Source of the DNA: Acidobacteriota bacterium
GTDB taxonomy: Bacteria > Acidobacteriota > Terriglobia > Versatilivoradales > Versatilivoraceae
Direction: 5' to 3'
Assembly: GCA_022826755.1 (NCBI GenBank)
Contig: JAJDUG010000040.1
Location: 1 to 54,376, forward strand
Length of the DNA: 54,376 nucleotides
In this document: positions 12,312 through 53,764 of the stretch, piece after piece
How the letters are laid out: every line of letters begins with the position of its first letter
Numbering within the stretch: the stretch's first letter is position 1
Position numbers and translations under genes: made by a program
Notes under the pieces: model-generated
What the model saw: the letters and a program-made list of their open reading frames with translations, nothing else
Told to the model about the DNA's origin: nothing
The model's database searches: none

Positions 12312-12448
12312 AGCTGCAGGCAAGGACCCCGTTCGAATTCTCCCGATGGCTGATACGGATACTGCTGTCGCCCGATTCGGATTGCAGGGAGTCCGGATTT
12401 TGTGTCAGGGCGCATCCCTGGATGTGCCGAACCATTGAGGTCAGTCTC

Positions 12449-13297
12449 ATGAAAAAATATATCCTTCCGGCCCTGTTGCTCCTCTTGGGCAGCGCCGGGC
12501 TCCGGGCCGCCGATTTCTGGGAAAAAAAGGATTACAAGCAGTGGAAGCCCAAGGATGTCCACAAGATGTTGACCAAATCTCCCTGGGCCCAGAATGTCTC
12601 CCTCGACCCCATGCGGATGAGACGGGGGGGGTTCGAGAACATTGAAGGAGGGCCGACGGAGGATCCGTCGGCACGGCGCAGCGATCCGGACCAGTCTTCG
12701 GGCCGTGGAGGCGGCGATGTCGGGTTTGGCAGCGGTGGCGCCGGCGGTGGCAGTCCTCCCAGCGGCAGCGTGGGTTCCGGCGGCGGATTGGGCCCCCCAT
12801 CCGGTAGCCCGCTTGGTGGCGGCGGCCCCGGTCTGGGCGGCCGGCGACCGGCGGCGAGGCGGGGGCCGCCTCCCATCAATGTGACCGTGCGCTGGGCCAG
12901 CGCCCTGCCGGTGAAGCAGGCCATCATTCGGGCCCGCTACCGGGGTGACTTCGAGGAATCGGAACAGGACAAGCAGCTTCTCAACATGAAGGACGAGCAG
13001 TACGTGGTCCTGTTGAGCGGTCTGCCCAGCCGGATGGCGCGCGGCCTGCAACGCAGCACCGAACGCATCAAGCAGATGACGGTCCTGCATCGGAAGAAAA
13101 AGGATCCCATCGCCGCCGCTTCGGTGGAGGTCTTGCCCCGGGATCAGTTTGTCGAGATCTTTATGTTCTTCCCCCGAGACGACGGCATCACTCTCGAGGA
13201 CAAGGACGTGGAACTGCGTACCCAGCTCGGCCCCTTCAAGATCAAGCGCAAGTTCAGGCTCAAGAAAATGGTCTTCAACGACAAGCTGGAGCTTTGA
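12449..13297 (+). CDS. Secreted protein of unknown function, first tandem copy
   Basis: A 282-residue protein with a Sec signal peptide (MKKYILPALLLLLGSAGLRA, cleaved before ADFW). The mature N-terminus DFWEKKDYKQWKPKDVHKML and KSPWAQNV resembles a group of uncharacterised acidobacterial secreted proteins with FW...W...SPWA motifs. A Gly/Ser/Pro-rich spacer (about 65-140) follows. The C-terminal domain (about 142-282) begins PPINVTVRWASALPVKQA and includes EQYVVLLSGLP and a Lys-rich end. The ATG at 12449 is used because GAGG (12437-12440) precedes it and the signal peptide then starts MKK. The next gene is a clear duplicate. I do not know the function; an envelope or periplasmic location is inferred from the signal peptide. 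Confidence 0.75.
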   Translation: MKKYILPALLLLLGSAGLRAADFWEKKDYKQWKPKDVHKMLTKSPWAQNVSLDPMRMRRGGFENIEGGPTEDPSARRSDPDQSSGRGGGDVGFGSGGAGGGSPPSGSVGSGGGLGPPSGSPLGGGGPGLGGRRPAARRGPPPINVTVRWASALPVKQAIIRARYRGDFEESEQDKQLLNMKDEQYVVLLSGLPSRMARGLQRSTERIKQMTVLHRKKKDPIAAASVEVLPRDQFVEIFMFFPRDDGITLEDKDVELRTQLGPFKIKRKFRLKKMVFNDKLEL

Positions 13298-13343
13298 GAG
13301 CCACGCTATCCGTCCGACGTGCTGACCACCCGAGGTCAGTCTC

Positions 13344-14153
13344 ATGAAAAAATCCCTCCTTCTGGCCCTATTGCTCTTATTGAGTAACTCCGGGCTGCGG
13401 GCCGCCGATTTCTGGAAAGAAAGGGATTACAAGCAGTGGAAGCCCAAGGAAGCTCACAAGATGTTGAACAAATCTCCCTGGGCCCAGAACGTCTCCCTCG
13501 ACCCCATGCGGATGAGGCGGGCGGGATTCGGGGACATCGAAGGCGATCTAGCCCAGGACCCCGCGGAAGGGCGAAGTCCGGCCCAGCCTCGGGGCAGTGT
13601 CGAAGCCCTGGCTGGCGATCCTAACCCCGTCCCCGTAGGGGCCGCCCCAGCCGGAGGTGGTCCGGGGTTTAACAGTTCCGGCTTGGCGGGCCGGCCCCCA
13701 CCGGCTGGTGGAGGTCTGGGGCCGCCTCCCATCAATGTAACCGTCCGCTGGGCCAGCGCCCTTCCGGTGAAACAGGCCGTGGTTCGGTCCCGCTACCGGG
13801 GGAACTTCGAGGAGTCGGAAAAGGACAAGCAGCTTCTCAACTCGAAGGACGAGCAGTACGTGATCCTGTTGAGCGGTCTGCCCGGCAGGATGGCCCCCGG
13901 CCTGCAAAGGAGCACCGATCGCATCACGCAGATGACGGTCCTGCATCGAAAGAAAAAGGATCCCATCCCGGCCGCTTCGGTTGAGGTTTTGCCCCGCGAC
14001 CAGTTTCTCGAGGTCTTCCTGTTCTTCCCTCGGACCGCGGCCATCGACCTCGGGGACAGGAACGTGGAACTGCGTACCCAGGTCGGCCCCTTCAAGATCA
14101 AGCGCAAGTTCAAGCTCAAGAACATGGTCTTCCAGGACAAGCTGGAGCTTTGA
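13344..14153 (+). CDS. Secreted protein of unknown function, second tandem copy
   Basis: A 269-residue paralogue of the preceding gene, 46 bases downstream. The signal peptide (MKKSLLLALLLLLSNSGLRA), the mature start ADFWKERDYKQWKPKEAHKM and the C-terminal domain from PPINVTVRWASALPVKQAVV to the final FQDKLEL are nearly the same as in copy one. The central Gly/Pro-rich linker (about 65-130) is unrelated in sequence and shorter. The 22 bases spanning the ribosome binding site and first codons (13332-13353) are identical to 12437-12458. This looks like an old tandem duplication with conserved ends and a free linker. The stop codon overlaps the TTG start of the aldolase gene. Confidence 0.75.
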   Translation: MKKSLLLALLLLLSNSGLRAADFWKERDYKQWKPKEAHKMLNKSPWAQNVSLDPMRMRRAGFGDIEGDLAQDPAEGRSPAQPRGSVEALAGDPNPVPVGAAPAGGGPGFNSSGLAGRPPPAGGGLGPPPINVTVRWASALPVKQAVVRSRYRGNFEESEKDKQLLNSKDEQYVILLSGLPGRMAPGLQRSTDRITQMTVLHRKKKDPIPAASVEVLPRDQFLEVFLFFPRTAAIDLGDRNVELRTQVGPFKIKRKFKLKNMVFQDKLEL

Positions 14154-25254: not shown

Positions 25255-26406
25255 ATGAGAGTGCCTTTCAGAGCCGTGGTGGTCCTCGGCGTCTGCACCC
25301 TGTGGGTTTCGCCGGCGACGGCCGCCGAGGTCGATTTCCACGACGCCCATTTCCACATCGCCAACTACGTTCAGCGGGGCATCGGCCTGGCGGACTTCCT
25401 GCAGATCATGGGAGACAAGGTGGGCCGCGTGTCGCTGTTCGGCATTCCGCTGCAACAGAAGTGGGACTACTTCGAGTCCGGAGACCGGGCGCCCGACTAC
25501 TACCTTCTCTCGGATTCCGCCCTCTACTACTACTCCTTTGTGGATGCCATGGTTGCCGAGGCCTACCGAGGCCTTTCGCCCCGGGACCGGCGCCGCTTCG
25601 ATCCCATGATCACCGGCTTCAACCCGACCGACATGTATGCGACCGACCATATTCGGCGGGTGCTGACCCTCTATCCCGGCGTTTTCAGCGGCATCGGCGA
25701 GTTCTCCGTCCACAAGGAATTCGTGTCCTCCAAGGTGCTGGGCCACACCGCCAGTCTGCGCAACCCCGCCCTGCACAGGATCCTGAAATTTGCCGGGGAG
25801 GTGGGGCTGGTGGTGAATCTCCACTGCGACATCAATACCGTGAGGCCGGTCAAGGGCGACAGGCCGGCCCATTTCGACGCCCTGAAAGAGATCTTCAGGG
25901 CTCATCCCAGCACCACCATCATCTGGGCCCACTCCGGACTGGGCCGCTTCGTGGGGCCCACGCCCAACCACCTGGAGTTGCTGGAGGAACTCTTTGGCGA
26001 CCCGGCCTTCTCCCACCTCTATTGCGACCTCTCCTGGGACGAGGTCGCCAAGTGGGTGGTCGAGAGCCCCGGGTCGGTCCGGGGCTGGGCCACTCTGCTG
26101 AACTCCCACCCTGGGCGCTTCCTCTTCGGCACCGACTCGGTGGCGCCCGCCAGCCGTGACGCCTACCTGAAAACCTATCGCGACTATCGGCCGCTCTGGG
26201 ACCGGTTGGACCAGACGGCCAGCCGCAAGATCCGCTACCGCAACTACGAGCGCATCTTCGATGCCGCCAACCGCAAGGTGCGGGACTGGGAGCGGCGGCA
26301 GAAGGACGGCAGTGCCGGCTCCGCCTCCCCGAAGCAACCTCCGATTGCAGGACTGAAACGACAGACACGAAAAGGCGCACTTCCTGTGGGCGCATCTGTT
26401 CGATGA
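25255..26406 (+). CDS. Amidohydrolase-family TIM-barrel protein, secreted
   Basis: A 383-residue protein with a signal peptide (VPFRAVVVLGVCTLWVSPATAA) and an amidohydrolase-2-like metal site: HDAHFH near residue 31, VNLHCDIN, WAHSGLGR and the late Asp in FGTDSVAP. ATG 25255 is preferred over upstream codons because GGGAGA precedes it and the signal peptide then starts correctly. The last 18 residues (from LKRQTRKGAL to the stop) are encoded inside a dispersed repeat copy (26351-26436), so the natural C-terminus has probably been replaced. Substrate unknown. Confidence 0.8.
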   Translation: MRVPFRAVVVLGVCTLWVSPATAAEVDFHDAHFHIANYVQRGIGLADFLQIMGDKVGRVSLFGIPLQQKWDYFESGDRAPDYYLLSDSALYYYSFVDAMVAEAYRGLSPRDRRRFDPMITGFNPTDMYATDHIRRVLTLYPGVFSGIGEFSVHKEFVSSKVLGHTASLRNPALHRILKFAGEVGLVVNLHCDINTVRPVKGDRPAHFDALKEIFRAHPSTTIIWAHSGLGRFVGPTPNHLELLEELFGDPAFSHLYCDLSWDEVAKWVVESPGSVRGWATLLNSHPGRFLFGTDSVAPASRDAYLKTYRDYRPLWDRLDQTASRKIRYRNYERIFDAANRKVRDWERRQKDGSAGSASPKQPPIAGLKRQTRKGALPVGASVR

Positions 26407-26436
26407 GCAGTTGAAGAATGTTCTTGACCCGCTCAA
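26351..26436 (+). repeat. Dispersed repeat copy, ends conserved and middle diverged
   Basis: It starts GACTGAAACGACAG, 10 of 12 identical to the outer end GCCTGAAACAAC of the other copies. It ends AATGTTCTTGACCCGCTCAA (26417-26436), 19 of 20 identical to 46047-46066. The middle has diverged. It overlaps the 3' end of the amidohydrolase gene. Confidence 0.6.
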
Positions 26437-33301: not shown

Positions 33302-35719
33302 TCATCTAGTGACCCGTTGGGGAATGCGGGCCAGGTTCCGTAGCTGCCTTTCCAATCTTTGGTAGCCGGCGTTCTCCGGATAATGGGCCAAGAGCTTACG
33401 GCTGTGCGCCAGCGCCTTTCCAAACTCCCGCCGGTCGCGATGAATGGTAGCCAGCGCGAACAGGAGCTCCCGGTCATGAGGTCGGGATTTCAGTGCTTGT
33501 TCCAGCACGCGGATCGCCCGGGCCGACTTTCCCAGGGAGTTGAGCGCTACCCCGTAGACGTAGGCATGGCGGCTGTCGTCCGGATCCAGCTCCGCGGCTC
33601 GGGCCAGGTGGTCCAGGGCCGTCCGGCGCTCGCCGGTCCGGACCAGCAGCAAGCCTAGGGCATGTTGCGCCGAAGCCGATCGGGGGGCTGTTTTCAGCGC
33701 CTCCAGCAGCAGCTTCCTTCCCGCGCCCTCCCGGTCCATCTCCCGGTAGAGGTCTGCCAGGTTCAGATAGGCCGGGATGAAGGCCGGCTCCAGGGAAATC
33801 GCCCGCCTGTAGGACGCTTCAGCCCCTTCGAAATCCCGCTGATCCCGGTAGAGGTCCCCGAGGTTGAGACGGCCGCCGGGATGGTCGGCATGGAGCTGCT
33901 GAACCTCTTCGTACTCACGGACGGCCGCGGTTCTGAGCTGGCGTTGCCGGCGTGAAAGCCCGGCCGGGGCAGGCCCGGCCAGGGAGCGGCCGGCCAGGGT
34001 CCTCACCAGTCGCACCGGGTCCTCCGGGGCCGCCTGCAAGGGAAGCTCCCGCTGGTGGGGCGGCACCGATCCCAGGGCTTCGACCGCCGCTGCCCGCACC
34101 AGCGGGCTGGGATCCGTCGCCAATTCTGCGAGCGCCTCGGCGGTGCTCCCTCCGGGATAGCTTCCCAGCAGCGAGACGGCGGTGGCCCGAACGATGGCAG
34201 GATGGCGGGGTGCCCGGGCCAAGCGGATGAGGTCCGGCGCCAGGCCGGGCATTCCCTTGCGGGCGGCGGCAAGGGTCTCGCCGAAGTGCTTGTCTCTGGG
34301 GCCGGCCCCGTACCATCGCTGAAAGTGTCCTACCGCCCATTGGGTGGACCGCTCCCCATGGCAATGGTTGCAGGCGTTGGGCGTTTCCAGGCGGGCTGTC
34401 AAATCGGGGCGTGGGGCGCGAAAGCTGTGGTCGCGGCGTGGATCCACCACCATGTAGGTCCGGGCGGGCATGTGGCACTCCACGCAACGGGCGCCGCGGG
34501 AGCCGGGCGGATGGTGGTGGTGGGAGCGTGAGGTATAGGTCCCGGCGGCGTGGCAGCGAGTGCAGAGCCCATCCCCCTCTTGGCGGAGACGGGCGCTGTG
34601 GGGGTCGTGGCAATCGGTGCAGACCACGCCCTTCTGCGCCATGCGGCTCTGCAGGAAGGACCCGTAGACATAGACCTCCTCCTGAATCTGGCCGTCGGGG
34701 TAGTAGAGGTCTTCTTCCAGCAAGCTCAGGTTGTGAGTGTTCAGCAGCGGGGCTCCATGGACGTAGTCCTCGCTGATGAGACCCCGCCTGGAGTGGCAAC
34801 GGGCGCACATCTCCGCCTGTGTGCGGGCGGCCAGAGGGGGAGTGCGCCGGGGTCTGCCGGTGCTCTCATCGCGGGTCCACACGGCAGGCTCGGCCTCCTT
34901 CAGCCGAATGGTCAGTCCAAGGTCGGGGGAATCCGGCAGTGCCACTCCGCGAGCCCGGGCCTCGGCCCATTCCACGTGGGCGGCACCCGGTCCGTGGCAG
35001 GCCTCGCAGGAGACATCCACCTCGGTCCAGCGGGTCTGGTAGGTTTCGGTTGACGGATCGAAGTTCTTGCGCAGACCGGTGGAGTGGCACTCGGCGCAGG
35101 CGGTATTCCAGTTCTGGGAGACCCGGGTCCAGAAGAGGAGGTCGCCGGGAGCAATGCGCTCGTTGCCGTAGAGGTGGAACCAACGCTGGCCGCCTTCTTC
35201 GCGGGGACGGGAGTCCCAGCAGAGGGGCAGGCACTGTAGACGCCCTCCCGGGAACGCCACCAGGTACTGCTGCAGGGGGTCCGCTCCAAAGGTGTACTTG
35301 ACCTCGAACTCTTCGACGGCTCCCGAGGCTCCTTCGGTCGAGACCAGGAACGTGCCGTCCCGGCGGTAGAACCTGGAAGTCACTCCCAAATGGGTCAGGG
35401 TGGCGTCCTCGAAGTCCCCCAGCACGGTCTGGGCGGTGGCCGGATCCATGGCCAGATCGTGGTGGGAACCGGTGTAGGCGACGTACTCGTCAGGGTGGCA
35501 GGGTTGGCAGGCTTTCCTGCCGGTGTAGCCGGCCGGGGCAAGTTCTCGGGAAGGCCCCCGGCAGCCGGCGACCGCCAGCAAGGCCAGAGCGACGACGGCC
35601 AGGTTGGCCGGCCTGAAACAACTGAGCGACGATCCGCGAGGGGCCAAAAGAGTAATCCGCGAAGGGCCACTAAGGCGTTGAGGTAATCCGCGACGGGCAC
35701 GACCTGGCACCGAGGTCAC
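33302..35719 (-). CDS. Octahaem c-type cytochrome lipoprotein with HEAT and TPR regions
   Basis: An 805-residue protein with a lipobox (LLAVAGC, Cys53) and eight CXXCH haem sites: CQPCH (71-75), CAECH, CEACH, CARCH, CTDCH, CTRCH, CVECH and CNHCH, all in the first 60 percent. Then come HEAT-like repeats (RHPAIVRATAVSLLGSYPGG and PLVRAAAVEALGSV), followed by at least four TPR units (EGAEASYRRAISLEPAFIPA, RTALDHLARAAELDPDDS, SARAIRVLEQALKSRPHD). It is probably anchored outside the cytoplasm and carries electrons or works in multiprotein oxidation. The first 36 residues overlap a dispersed repeat (35611-35700), and there is no clear start near the hydrophobic segment, so the N-terminal annotation is uncertain. 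Confidence 0.8.
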   Translation of the reverse strand: MTSVPGRARRGLPQRLSGPSRITLLAPRGSSLSCFRPANLAVVALALLAVAGCRGPSRELAPAGYTGRKACQPCHPDEYVAYTGSHHDLAMDPATAQTVLGDFEDATLTHLGVTSRFYRRDGTFLVSTEGASGAVEEFEVKYTFGADPLQQYLVAFPGGRLQCLPLCWDSRPREEGGQRWFHLYGNERIAPGDLLFWTRVSQNWNTACAECHSTGLRKNFDPSTETYQTRWTEVDVSCEACHGPGAAHVEWAEARARGVALPDSPDLGLTIRLKEAEPAVWTRDESTGRPRRTPPLAARTQAEMCARCHSRRGLISEDYVHGAPLLNTHNLSLLEEDLYYPDGQIQEEVYVYGSFLQSRMAQKGVVCTDCHDPHSARLRQEGDGLCTRCHAAGTYTSRSHHHHPPGSRGARCVECHMPARTYMVVDPRRDHSFRAPRPDLTARLETPNACNHCHGERSTQWAVGHFQRWYGAGPRDKHFGETLAAARKGMPGLAPDLIRLARAPRHPAIVRATAVSLLGSYPGGSTAEALAELATDPSPLVRAAAVEALGSVPPHQRELPLQAAPEDPVRLVRTLAGRSLAGPAPAGLSRRQRQLRTAAVREYEEVQQLHADHPGGRLNLGDLYRDQRDFEGAEASYRRAISLEPAFIPAYLNLADLYREMDREGAGRKLLLEALKTAPRSASAQHALGLLLVRTGERRTALDHLARAAELDPDDSRHAYVYGVALNSLGKSARAIRVLEQALKSRPHDRELLFALATIHRDRREFGKALAHSRKLLAHYPENAGYQRLERQLRNLARIPQRVTR
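35611..35700 (+). repeat. Dispersed repeat copy (left inverted end of the VOC cassette)
   Basis: It begins with the exact 12-mer GCCTGAAACAAC (35611-35622). It contains degenerate units ATCCGCGAGGGGCCA, TAATCCGCGAAGGGCCACTA and TAATCCGCGACGGGCAC. CGAAGGGCCACTAAG (35660-35674) matches 14 of 15 bases at 46026-46040. The copy lies in the 5' end of the octahaem gene, in opposite orientation to the copy at 36151-36203. Confidence 0.65.
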
Positions 35720-35753
35720 GAGCAGACATTCAAGGCTGAGCTGCTCAAGATCG

Positions 35754-36149
35754 TCACGGTTGACGCTTCTCCTCTACGATCTGGATCAAGTTGCCGCAGG
35801 AATCGTCGAATACCGCGGCAATGACAGTCCCGAGGTCCGTTGGCGGCTGTACGAATCGAACACCTCTTCCCAGGAGTCGCTCGTGTTCGGCTTCGACATC
35901 GTCGACCGCGAAGGAGGTCCAGGGGATACCGTCCTCAACGAGCGCTCTCTTGAACGGACGCACCGCGGGATGGGCATCGGGCTCGAGCACCAACTGCGTC
36001 CCCTCTGGAGCTTCCTCGGATACAACCGTGATCCAGGCATGCTCTCCCAGGGGGATGTTGTGCTTCAGCTGGAAGCCAAGTGTTTCCGTGTAGAAGCGAA
36101 GTGCCTTCTGTTGGTCGTCTACCAGCACGCTGGCCAGGTGAATTCTCAT
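35754..36149 (-). CDS. VOC-family (glyoxalase/bleomycin-resistance) protein
   Basis: A 131-residue protein with two beta-alpha-beta-beta-beta modules: MRIHLASVLVDDQQKALRFY at the start, then SFAVDDVEAEHERLLGRG and DSCGNLIQIVEEKRQP near the end. It folds as a vicinal-oxygen-chelate monomer and probably binds a metal; enzyme, binding-protein and resistance roles are all possible. It is the only gene between two inverted copies of a dispersed repeat, and its Shine-Dalgarno GAAGGA belongs to the repeat at 36151-36203. It may be a mobile passenger gene. Confidence 0.83.
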   Translation of the reverse strand: MRIHLASVLVDDQQKALRFYTETLGFQLKHNIPLGEHAWITVVSEEAPEGTQLVLEPDAHPAVRPFKRALVEDGIPWTSFAVDDVEAEHERLLGRGVRFVQPPTDLGTVIAAVFDDSCGNLIQIVEEKRQP

Positions 36150-36150
36150 C

Positions 36151-36203
36151 TCGTCGTCCTTCGTGTGTCTTCGTGGATAACCCTTTTTCCCGTTGTTTCA
36201 GGC
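36151..36203 (-). repeat. Dispersed repeat copy (right inverted end of the VOC cassette)
   Basis: On the minus strand the copy starts with GCCTGAAACAAC (plus strand GTTGTTTCAGGC at 36192-36203) and runs to GACGACGAG, ending one base before the VOC start codon. It aligns over its whole length with 45975-46028, with about 85 percent of bases identical by eye. It begins 17 bases after the stop of the DUF1501 gene. Confidence 0.7.
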
Positions 36204-36220
36204 AGGCGGTCCGGGCCGGC

Positions 36221-37561
36221 TCAGATCAAGCCCTCGATGGGCAGGCCGCTCTCTCCGCCGATGGAGTTGGCAATCTTGACGGGCCGTTGGATGGGGGTCA
36301 TGTATTCCTTGGTCCAGTCGATTCCCAGCGCCTTGTAGACGGTGGCGAACAGGTCCCCGATGGTCACCATGCGGTCCGCCACCCGCGCCCCTCGTTCGTC
36401 GCTGGCGCCGATCACCTGCCCACCCCGAATCCCCCCGCCGCCCAGCACCAACGACCAGCAGTGGGGCCAGTGGTCCCGGCCTCCCCGGGGATTGACATGG
36501 GGAGTTCTGCCGAATTCTCCCATGGCCACAACCAGTGTCGATTCCAGCAGTCCCCGTTGGTCCAGGTCCTTCATCAGGGCAGACAGAGCCTGATCGAAGG
36601 GAGGGGCCAGCAGGTCGCGATTGTATCTGTCGTTATCCACGTGGCAGAGATCCCACTCGGTCATGTCATATCCGGCGGCCGTGGCAAACCGGCAGCCCCC
36701 TTCGATCAGCCGGCGAGCCAGCAGCACGCTCTGGCCGAAACGGTGCCGGCCGTATGCGTCTCGGGTCTTTTCCGATTCCTGCGACAGGTCGAAGGCCTGC
36801 CGGACCTGCGGAGAAGCGAGGATCGTCAGGGCCTGCTGCCTGAAGTCGTCCAGGGCCGCGAACTCGGCCTGCTGCTCCTGGTTGCGATAGAGGCGGTCCA
36901 CCACCTCCAGGAAGGAGCGGCGATGGGACACCCGGTCCATGCCGATCTCCTTGGGAAGCACCAGGTCGGGAACCTGAAAGTCTTCCCGGGCGGGATCGGG
37001 GACCACCATGGGCTGGTAGCGGGCGCCGATGAAGCCGGCGTTGAAGTAGTTCAGATAGGGTCGGTCGATGGGAGGTGCGATCACGTAAGGGGGCATGTTG
37101 CGGCGGGGGCTGAGCTCCCTGGCGATGATGGACCCCAGGCTGGGAGACTCCAGGGCCGAGTTGGGACGGTGTCCGGTGATCGCGTAGTAGGTCGCCTGCT
37201 GGTGATCGATCTCCTCGGTGTACATCGAGCGGACAACGGCCAGCTTGTCCATGTGCCGGGCCACCCGGGGCAGCAGCTCGGAGACCCGGATGCCCGGGAC
37301 ATTGGTCGAAATGGGCGCAAAGGCGCTGTTGGGCTTGGGATCGAAGGTGTCGACCTGGCTGGGACCACCCTCCAGCCACAGCAGGATGCAGGCCTGGGCC
37401 TTGGCGGCCGGCTTCACCGGGGAGCCCGAGGCCGCCATCAGGTGCTTGAGCTGCAGATAGCGGCTCAGGCTGAGTCCGAACAGACCCAGCGAGCCCGCGC
37501 GCAGGAAGCCCCTGCGAGCGAGGCGGGTCTCGTTCAGACAGGGATCAGGAATCGATTTCAC
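36221..37561 (-). CDS. DUF1501 Tat-exported protein
   Basis: A 446-residue protein with a twin-arginine leader (LARRGFLRAGSLGLFGLSL). It contains family blocks ILLWLEGGPSQVDTFDPKP, SELLPRVARHMDKLAVVRSM, VVAMGEFGRTPHVNPRGGRD and GGQVIGASDERGARV. DUF1501 proteins have a sulfatase/alkaline-phosphatase-like fold, and their genes usually pair with DUF1549/1553 genes, as here. Function is unknown. The start is set at GTG 37561 because GGAAGG precedes it and the Tat motif then lies near residue 16. A longer frame upstream runs through the small glycine-zipper gene and lacks family similarity. It overlaps that gene by 17 bases. Confidence 0.85.
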   Translation of the reverse strand: MKSIPDPCLNETRLARRGFLRAGSLGLFGLSLSRYLQLKHLMAASGSPVKPAAKAQACILLWLEGGPSQVDTFDPKPNSAFAPISTNVPGIRVSELLPRVARHMDKLAVVRSMYTEEIDHQQATYYAITGHRPNSALESPSLGSIIARELSPRRNMPPYVIAPPIDRPYLNYFNAGFIGARYQPMVVPDPAREDFQVPDLVLPKEIGMDRVSHRRSFLEVVDRLYRNQEQQAEFAALDDFRQQALTILASPQVRQAFDLSQESEKTRDAYGRHRFGQSVLLARRLIEGGCRFATAAGYDMTEWDLCHVDNDRYNRDLLAPPFDQALSALMKDLDQRGLLESTLVVAMGEFGRTPHVNPRGGRDHWPHCWSLVLGGGGIRGGQVIGASDERGARVADRMVTIGDLFATVYKALGIDWTKEYMTPIQRPVKIANSIGGESGLPIEGLI

Positions 37562-37754
37562 TATCGCCTTCCGCGGGCGGGCTATCGGTATCCCGCTTCT
37601 TCTTTGGCCACGTCCCGATAGCAGCGCCGATGGCCAGACCCAGCGCCACGCCTGTCCCAATCGCATCCAAAGCCGCACCGATAGCCGCACCGAAAACGAT
37701 GCCGAGCCCTGCATAATGAGCGACCGGGTCATTCGCTTTGCGCTTGCAAGCCAT
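37545..37754 (-). CDS. Small glycine-zipper membrane protein
   Basis: A 69-residue protein with a central hydrophobic Gly/Ala-rich stretch, GLGIVFGAAIGAALDAIGTG followed by VALGLAIGAAIG, flanked by a basic N-terminus (MACKRKAN) and a charged tail. Repeated GxxxG spacing suggests two closely packed helices in a membrane. It lies between DUF1549/1553 (95-base gap) and DUF1501 (17-base overlap), so it may be a co-translated partner. Function is unknown. It is likely real because its composition is far from random and it has an ATG with a GGGAC-type upstream sequence. Confidence 0.6.
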   Translation of the reverse strand: MACKRKANDPVAHYAGLGIVFGAAIGAALDAIGTGVALGLAIGAAIGTWPKKKRDTDSPPAEGDSEIDS

Positions 37755-45974: not shown

Positions 45975-46066
45975 GCCTGAAACAACAGAAAAAAAGAGCT
46001 ATCCACCAAGGCACACGAAGGACGACGAAGGGCCACCAAGAAAGACAATGTTCTTGACCCACTCAA
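45975..46066 (+). repeat. Most complete copy of the dispersed repeat
   Basis: It begins GCCTGAAACAAC (45975-45986), 21 bases after the SPFH stop. It continues with TATCCACCAAGGCACACGAA, CGAAGGGCCACCAAG (46026-46040) and AATGTTCTTGACCCACTCAA (46047-46066). Parts of this unit recur at 26351-26436, 35611-35700 and 36151-36203. It is non-coding here. Confidence 0.7.
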
Positions 46067-46126: not shown

Positions 46127-46172
46127 GCCTCTCGTCCTGTCAATCCTGTGCATCCTGTGTATCGATGTTCAA
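46127..46172 (-). repeat. Second repeat family, copy A (ACACAGGATGCACAGGAT)
   Basis: On the minus strand the unit reads TTGAACATCGATACACAGGA and continues TGCACAGGAT, a 3-base variable stretch and CAGGACG. It matches 53539-53584 with only a few differences. The 5-alpha-reductase-like reading frame enters it after SDYR and picks up a tail (LNIDTQDAQD) and a stop. Confidence 0.75.
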
Positions 46173-53238: not shown

Positions 53239-53764
53239 GGGCTTCCTCCCGGTCCAGAAGTTTTCTCAGGCCGCCTCTGCTGACATGCAGACTCCGAATC
53301 CTACCACGAACCGCCGCTCGGCGGAGCCTGTTGCGGTTCCGGCTGGTGTGAAGCGGCCTGGCATAGCCGGAAGCCCTTGCAAATTTCGGAGAATTCTGGT
53401 CCATTGGGGCCTTGCGCAAGCCGCCGGAGGTTTCCGGCAAATCCTGGCCGTGGCGGACGAATCATTCAAGAGCGAAACTACGAACCGTTGGCCTGTTGGG
53501 AACAAGGACCATGTCCCGATAAACTGGTTTTCTGCTTATTGAACATGGATACACAGGATGCACAGGATAATCAGGACGGGAGGCTGCGCACGGCCTGCAA
53601 CCGATCTGCGGACAGATTCTGCGATAGTTCAATCCCGGAGTCTCTTCGTCCGGGTGACCATCGAGCGGAGGGGCCAGCCGGCAGGTTTTCTCAAAGGGCG
53701 AAGCTCATTCTGTAGTGGGTTGGTCTTGTGGCTGTGAGCTATACTGGACCCAAGAGGAAGCCTC
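53239..53764. other. Intergenic region with repeat, upstream of the sigma factor
   Basis: A 526-base gap with no gene I can support. It holds a GC hairpin (CCGCCG-CT-CGGCGG at 53311-53324), repeat copy B at 53539-53584, and a TATACT hexamer (53740-53745) without a good -35, 19 bases before the start of the sigma-factor gene. Confidence 0.5.
53539..53584 (+). repeat. Second repeat family, copy B
   Basis: The unit TTGAACATGGATACACAGGA, continued by TGCACAGGATAATCAGGACG, matches the reverse complement of 46127-46172 except for a few positions. It lies in non-coding DNA between the SDR and sigma-factor genes. Confidence 0.75.

What the first reader, a model, noticed from the sequence alone, without database searches (positions are those of the whole stretch)
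35611..36203. A VOC gene bounded by perfect 12-bp inverted repeats looks like a small mobile cassette
GCCTGAAACAAC at 35611-35622 and its exact complement at 36192-36203 form the outer ends of two facing copies of a dispersed repeat. The single gene between them is VOC (35754-36149). The same 12-mer occurs at 45975-45986, and a near match at 26351-26362. No transposase is inside, so a non-autonomous or recombination-based unit is implied. No clear target-site duplication is seen.
Basis: partly seen in the sequence, partly recalled or inferred. Interest (0 to 1): 0.65.

Follow-up and report, generated by a model that had tools for sequence, protein, structure and literature searches.

The report
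Glyoxalase-like gene inside resident palindromic repeat
A small enzyme gene, recently acquired from a related species, has landed inside an older palindromic repeat; the matching 12-base ends belong to that repeat and are not the ends of a gene cassette, but the repeat itself belongs to a widespread, poorly described class of selfish-looking elements.

Summary
GCCTGAAACAAC lies at 35611 (+), 36192 (-) and 45975 (+). The genome has 41 exact copies against 0 for the reversed control. It is the outer tip of a dispersed repeat (f1) whose two facing copies flank one VOC gene.

The cassette reading fails. Congener G001 has the same two 12-mers at the same two borders, 17 bp after DUF1501 and at the start of the cytochrome gene, but no VOC. 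G003-G006 keep one or both arms, more or less decayed, also without VOC. The VOC segment (35722-36152) sits elsewhere, with different breakpoints, in each congener that has it. It is too similar between species (4-fold-site difference 0.06-0.08, against 0.15-0.29 for two core genes), so it arrived recently.

The host repeat is the interesting part. In Acidobacteriota, 33 of 44 GxxExxY (PD-(D/E)XK nuclease-like) genes lie between inverted arrays, mostly of 8-10 bp units; 32 of 36 four-helix-bundle (rRNA-intervening-sequence) genes lie between inverted arrays, mostly of 7 bp units; controls 0 of 18. Plasmids of other phyla agree (3 of 7 and 10 of 10). I found no description of this rule. VOC is a passenger in one such repeat.

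The parts
35754..36149 (-). VOC / glyoxalase-family gene (131 aa), the passenger
   Evidence: PF00903 E=2e-19; 91-99% aa identical homologues at other places in five congeners
35722..36152 (-). Segment shared with VOC loci of congeners (the DNA that moved): from about 3 bp before ATG to 32 bp after the stop
   Evidence: BLAST of the locus against G003, G005, G006 and others; junctions show only 1-3 bp possible microhomology, read by eye
36151..36203 (-). f1 repeat arm next to DUF1501; outer tip GCCTGAAACAAC at 36192-36203; iteron part CCACGAAGACACACGAAGGACGACGAG runs up to the VOC start codon and offers a GAAGGA ribosome-binding-like site
   Evidence: Aligns to f1 unit, score 38 vs shuffle max 15; same arm at same place in G001 and G006 without VOC
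35611..35721 (+). Second, decayed f1 arm facing the first; outer 12-mer at 35611-35622 lies within the start of the cytochrome/TPR gene
   Evidence: Aligns to f1 unit, score 42.8 vs shuffle max 18; related sequence or tip at this place in G001, G003, G004, G005, G006 without VOC
36221..37732 (-). DUF1501 protein gene, upstream neighbour
   Evidence: PF07394 E=2.8e-99; orthologue in all seven species of the genus
33302..35719 (-). Multihaem-cytochrome / TPR lipoprotein gene, downstream neighbour (ORF extent; the likely TTG start, inferred, is about 35645)
   Evidence: PF14522, PF09699, TPR families; orthologues 84-87% identical in six congeners
45975..46050 (+). Another f1 copy, same tip and iterons, ahead of a family-2 repeat
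26351..26430 (+). Decayed f1 copy
   Evidence: 2 mismatches in tip, conserved AATGTTCTTGACCC.CTCAAAG downstream

Best explanation
The region is a resident, decaying palindromic repeat element (family f1) that occupied the DUF1501-cytochrome intergenic gap before the VOC gene came. A 431-bp piece carrying little more than the VOC reading frame was acquired recently from another species of the genus and joined inside it, leaving one partial f1 arm on each side. The arm supplies the 5' leader of VOC. The moved piece has no ends of its own, so it probably arrived by illegitimate or repeat-assisted recombination and was kept by selection on VOC. The f1 repeat belongs to a wider class of inverted-repeat elements with short tandem units in the arms, whose usual loop gene is a GxxExxY (PD-(D/E)XK nuclease-like) gene. 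Shown: repeat identity, site history, VOC relocation, recent spread, class association. Inferred: the joining mechanism, the expression role of the arm, and any activity of GxxExxY on the arms.
For: The same two 12-mers at the same borders without VOC in G001. Left arm shared with G006 and G001; right-side sequence shared with G003, G004, G005, G006 and G001. G004 is nearly empty at this site. VOC lies in an ArsR-VOC pair in G003 and next to the 3' part of an ArsR gene in G002 and G004, with different ends in every genome. VOC 4-fold-site difference G000 vs G003/G005a/G006 is 0.06-0.08, while DUF1501 gives 0.15-0.21 and YchF 0.18-0.29 for the same pairs. In the genus, f2 and f3 arms pair facing inwards 38:1 and 47:6. 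GxxExxY genes sit between facing f1, f2 or f3 arms. Association of GxxExxY and four-helix-bundle genes with inverted short-unit arrays.
Against: No species closer than about 93% nucleotide identity at DUF1501 is held, so no clean before/after pair exists for the VOC insertion itself. The inverted match of the two VOC flanks as a whole (score 20) does not exceed the best of 1000 shuffles (22), because the right arm has a 23-bp interruption. A donor with VOC already flanked by f1 arms could exist unsampled.
Confidence: 0.7

Rival explanations
1. Repeat-arm exchange: VOC already lay between f1 arms in an unsampled donor and came in by homologous recombination between donor and resident arms, so the arms act as a docking site for cassettes.
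For: f1 has about 140 copies in this genome. In G003 the ArsR-VOC pair lies inside a family-2 inverted-repeat element that is contiguous and empty in G001. Facing arms hold GxxExxY, VOC or nothing at various sites.
Against: None of the other six VOC copies in five congeners has f1 arms abutting VOC; breakpoints vary.
Confidence: 0.17
2. Non-autonomous transposon cassette with 12-bp terminal inverted repeats, moved in trans.
For: Perfect 12-bp inverted tips; VOC found at different loci in the genus.
Against: The tips exist at the same borders without VOC in G001; no target duplication seen; VOC copies elsewhere lack the tips; moved segment ends inside the arms.
Confidence: 0.07
3. Assembly artefact: two contigs joined through f1 copies.
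For: The genome is in 81 contigs and f1 copies are numerous.
Against: The junctions are mid-contig in a 54-kb contig; flanking gene order DUF1501-cytochrome is that of the congeners; arm copies are only about 50 bp and at most 96% alike.
Confidence: 0.03
4. VOC was inserted first and f1 copies hopped in around it later.
For: f1-type repeats turn over fast in intergenic gaps of the genus.
Against: Arms at the same borders in congeners without VOC would require independent insertions at the same bases.
Confidence: 0.03

Closest known systems
23S rRNA intervening sequences (IVS) with S23p / four-helix-bundle ORF (e.g. Coxiella burnetii, PMC4990558)
   Same: Inverted terminal repeats forming a long stem, small ORF in the loop, tandem 7-bp repeats beside the ORF, long suspected to be selfish or mobile. 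Four-helix-bundle genes here (PF05635) sit in the same architecture with 7-bp units.
   Different: The elements here are intergenic, not in rRNA (genes on both sides in annotated plasmids). The f1 class carries GxxExxY instead, with 8-10 bp units. The window copy holds VOC.
MITEs / IS-derived miniature elements
   Same: Many short dispersed copies with inverted ends; internally deleted GxxExxY relics occur inside such elements.
   Different: No target duplication, no parent transposase identified, arms are tandem short-unit arrays.
REP / BIME palindromes (e.g. PMC3733652)
   Same: Intergenic, dispersed, palindromic, high copy.
   Different: f1 units are about 50-165 bp with tandem 9-10 bp units; their native loop gene is a PD-(D/E)XK family protein, not a REP-associated tyrosine transposase (from general knowledge).
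Heptameric direct repeats of Beggiatoaceae and cyanobacteria (TAACTGA, PMC4679880)
   Same: Intergenic tandem 7-mers in many copies, suspected to be mobile.
   Different: That paper does not mention four-helix-bundle genes (0 text hits); relation to the elements here is untested.

Membership tests
Transposon/MITE cassette with 12-bp TIRs | Terminal inverted repeats at the ends of the moved DNA | tested here: not met
   Moved DNA is 35722-36152, inside the arms; tips present without VOC in G001
Transposon/MITE cassette with 12-bp TIRs | Target-site duplication and clean empty site | tested here: not met
   No duplication read at 36204 / 35610; G004 near-empty gap keeps part of the right arm
Transposon/MITE cassette with 12-bp TIRs | Related autonomous transposase with the same ends | not tested
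   No search of transposase ends was made
f1 / GxxExxY-type inverted-repeat element | Arms of the f1 family facing inwards | tested here: met
   Scores 38 and 42.8 vs shuffle max 15 and 18
f1 / GxxExxY-type inverted-repeat element | GxxExxY gene in the loop | tested here: not met
   Loop holds VOC; GxxExxY lies in f1 arms at L064, L071, L072, L073
23S rRNA intervening sequence | Located in 23S rRNA | tested here: not met
   Lies between two protein genes; no rRNA match in the window in the Rfam scan
23S rRNA intervening sequence | S23p/IVP ORF in the loop | tested here: not met
   VOC instead
23S rRNA intervening sequence | Excision of the transcript by RNase III | not testable with these tools
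   Needs RNA work
Integron gene cassette | attC site and integrase, cassette with fixed ends | tested here: inconclusive
   Ends are not fixed; no attC or integrase search was made

The most novel reading that the evidence does not exclude
Intergenic inverted-repeat elements with tandem short-unit arms form two sister classes of mobile elements found across bacterial phyla: one coding a GxxExxY PD-(D/E)XK protein with 8-10 bp units, one coding an S23p four-helix-bundle protein with 7 bp units. The rRNA intervening sequences known since 1990 would be a special case of the second. The encoded protein would recognise its own unit length. Occasionally a host gene such as VOC ends up as cargo.
Probability: 0.4. 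Interest if true: 0.8.

Novelty: new variant of a known kind. Interest (0 to 1): 0.5.

Why it matters
The VOC unit alone is a modest case of a gene landing in a repeat. The repeat class matters more. It would give GxxExxY, a common family of unknown function, a setting and a testable DNA target. It would turn the old question of where rRNA intervening sequences come from into a testable one: are they rRNA-resident members of an element that mostly lives between genes? It also warns that perfect short inverted repeats around a gene do not prove a cassette.

Tried and rejected
Cassette with 12-bp ends: rejected on G001, G006 and G005 site comparison. VOC amplified inside the genome: only one copy in G000. 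L121 as a second gene cassette: its 405-aa gene is conserved in six of seven congeners (81-100%), so it is a host gene that happens to lie between facing arms. Rfam: no RNA family in the window; Acido-Lenti-1 hits only in congener repeats. Literature strings of the repeat units gave no relevant paper; GxxExxY is mentioned in only two papers of the library; the one I opened names it only as a neighbour of a reverse transcriptase. Attempts that failed technically: whole genome as file, GxxExxY search centred on another phylum, two frame errors.

Full report
What is there. The 12-mer GCCTGAAACAAC is exact at 35611-35622 (+), 36192-36203 (-) and 45975-45986 (+). In the whole genome (4.62 Mb, 81 contigs) it occurs 41 times against 0 for the reversed control. 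It is the tip of a dispersed repeat, here called f1: TGAAACAAC-A-rich stretch-GAGTTATCCACGAAGACACACGAAGGACGACGAAG and more, with 139 copies of the 23-bp inner motif at up to 3 mismatches against 0 in the control. Both flanks of the VOC gene align to an f1 unit far above shuffles.

Who it is. The genus is known from metagenome-assembled genomes labelled Acidobacteriota or Terriglobia.

History of the site. All seven species have DUF1501 followed by the cytochrome/TPR gene; in G005 the gap is seen only up to the first part of the cytochrome gene, because its contig ends there. The gap holds different repeat mosaics in each. G001 has GCCTGAAACAAC 17 bp after the DUF1501 stop and GTTGTTTCAGGC at the start of the cytochrome gene, exactly the window's pair, but about 3.4 kb of repeats between them and no VOC gene in the genome. 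G006 has both tips with one mismatch each and 0.65 kb of repeats between. G003, G004 and G005 keep related right-arm sequence. In G000, G003, G004 and G005 the right-hand sequence is also the coding start of the cytochrome gene: my reading is a TTG start formed at the end of the f1 arm, giving M-A-P-R-G-S-S-L-S-C-F-R in G000. G004 is nearly empty. The borders therefore predate VOC.

History of the gene. VOC is 98-99% identical in protein to copies in G003, G005 and G006, all in other places; it is absent from G001. In G003 it follows an ArsR-type regulator (HTH_20/HTH_5) and overlaps its stop codon. That pair lies inside a family-2 inverted-repeat element in the YchF-response-regulator gap, where the other congeners that could be read have an empty gap or other repeats; an uninterrupted copy of the family-2 element is seen elsewhere in G001. 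In G006 the last codons of ArsR are fused to another gene upstream of VOC. The shared segment has different ends in each genome. Divergence at 4-fold sites between G000 and G003/G005a/G006 is 0.06-0.08 for VOC, but 0.15-0.21 for DUF1501 and 0.18-0.29 for YchF (VOC has only 66 such sites). This is recent spread between species. In the window the shared piece runs from 36152 to 35722 and ends inside both arms, so the arms did not travel as its ends.

How it most likely works. Shown: an old f1 palindrome, a young VOC piece joined inside it, arms decayed. Inferred: joining by illegitimate or repeat-assisted recombination; VOC is read from the DUF1501 side, with the arm's GAAGGA acting as ribosome-binding site just before ATG.

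What the repeat is. In about 1 Mb of held sequence, arms of families f2 and f3 are paired facing inwards 38 to 1 and 47 to 6 (some loci overlap, so these counts include repeats of the same place). Between such arms one finds either about 30-280 bp of non-coding DNA or a GxxExxY gene (TIGR04256, PF13366 PD-(D/E)XK). To test whether this is general I compared the flanks of genes with a local alignment in inverted and in direct orientation against 100 shuffles. GxxExxY: 11 of 12 in the genus and 22 of 32 elsewhere in Acidobacteriota have inverted flanks above all shuffles; direct, 1 and 6. Four-helix-bundle genes (TIGR02436, PF05635): 10 of 10 and 22 of 26; direct, 0 and 1. Control genes DUF1501 and YchF: 0 of 18. 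The arms are short tandem units. Unit length was 7 in 27 of 32 four-helix-bundle cases, and 8, 9 or 10 in 25 GxxExxY cases with a clear period and never 7. On plasmids from other phyla the four-helix-bundle rule held in 10 of 10 (including between nrdB and nrdA in Nostoc and between cas10 and cmr3 in Picosynechococcus) and the GxxExxY rule in 3 of 7 (Bacteroides, Bernardetia, Sphingomonas between fabD and fabG). Deleted GxxExxY relics sit inside such elements in G001 and G133. Exact f1 motifs also occur as short hairpins in Syntrophobacteraceae, Pyrinomonadaceae and others.

Comparison with what is known. The nearest described thing is the 23S rRNA intervening sequence: in Coxiella it has 28-bp terminal inverted repeats, a four-helix-bundle ORF in the loop and tandem heptamers GACAGAT beside it, and a mobile origin has been suggested (PMC4990558). 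The elements here share that plan but lie between protein genes. I found no paper in the held library that links GxxExxY, or intergenic four-helix-bundle genes, to such arms; most subscription journals are not in it.

Limits. Samples are not phylogenetically independent. Shuffles keep base composition only. GxxExxY mobility and any activity on the arms are untested. The most that can be said of the window is that VOC is a recent passenger in a repeat of this class.

Noticed in passing
window 46127-46172 (+) and 53539-53584 (-): Two copies of a second dispersed repeat family (TTGAACATCGATGCACAGGATGCACAGGAT...), the f2 family, which elsewhere in the genus forms about 150-bp inverted-repeat elements, some with a GxxExxY gene.
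   Followed up: partly
L191:1648-1693, L191:14766-14811, L086:1085-1130: Rfam Acido-Lenti-1 RNA (RF01687) hits lie inside dispersed repeats of these genomes, so that family may be a mobile repeat rather than a conventional RNA gene.
   Followed up: partly
L277-L280 (G133): GxxExxY relics between inverted arms lie just downstream of a transposase-like reading frame with near-identical flanks, in many copies; an insertion sequence may have carried the element as passenger.
   Followed up: no
L189:300-416 (G006): The last ArsR codons are fused in frame to an unrelated upstream gene, keeping the stop/start overlap with VOC.
   Followed up: no
window 12421-14017: Two long direct repeats (300 and 261 nt, 82-89% identical, about 0.9 kb apart), perhaps a tandem gene duplication.
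   Followed up: no
G001:C1 (about 16 places, e.g. 1621095-1621223): A further arm family (CACAAAAGGCACAAAAACACAAA) with a GxxExxY gene reduced to its last 43 codons, dispersed in many near-identical copies.
   Followed up: partly
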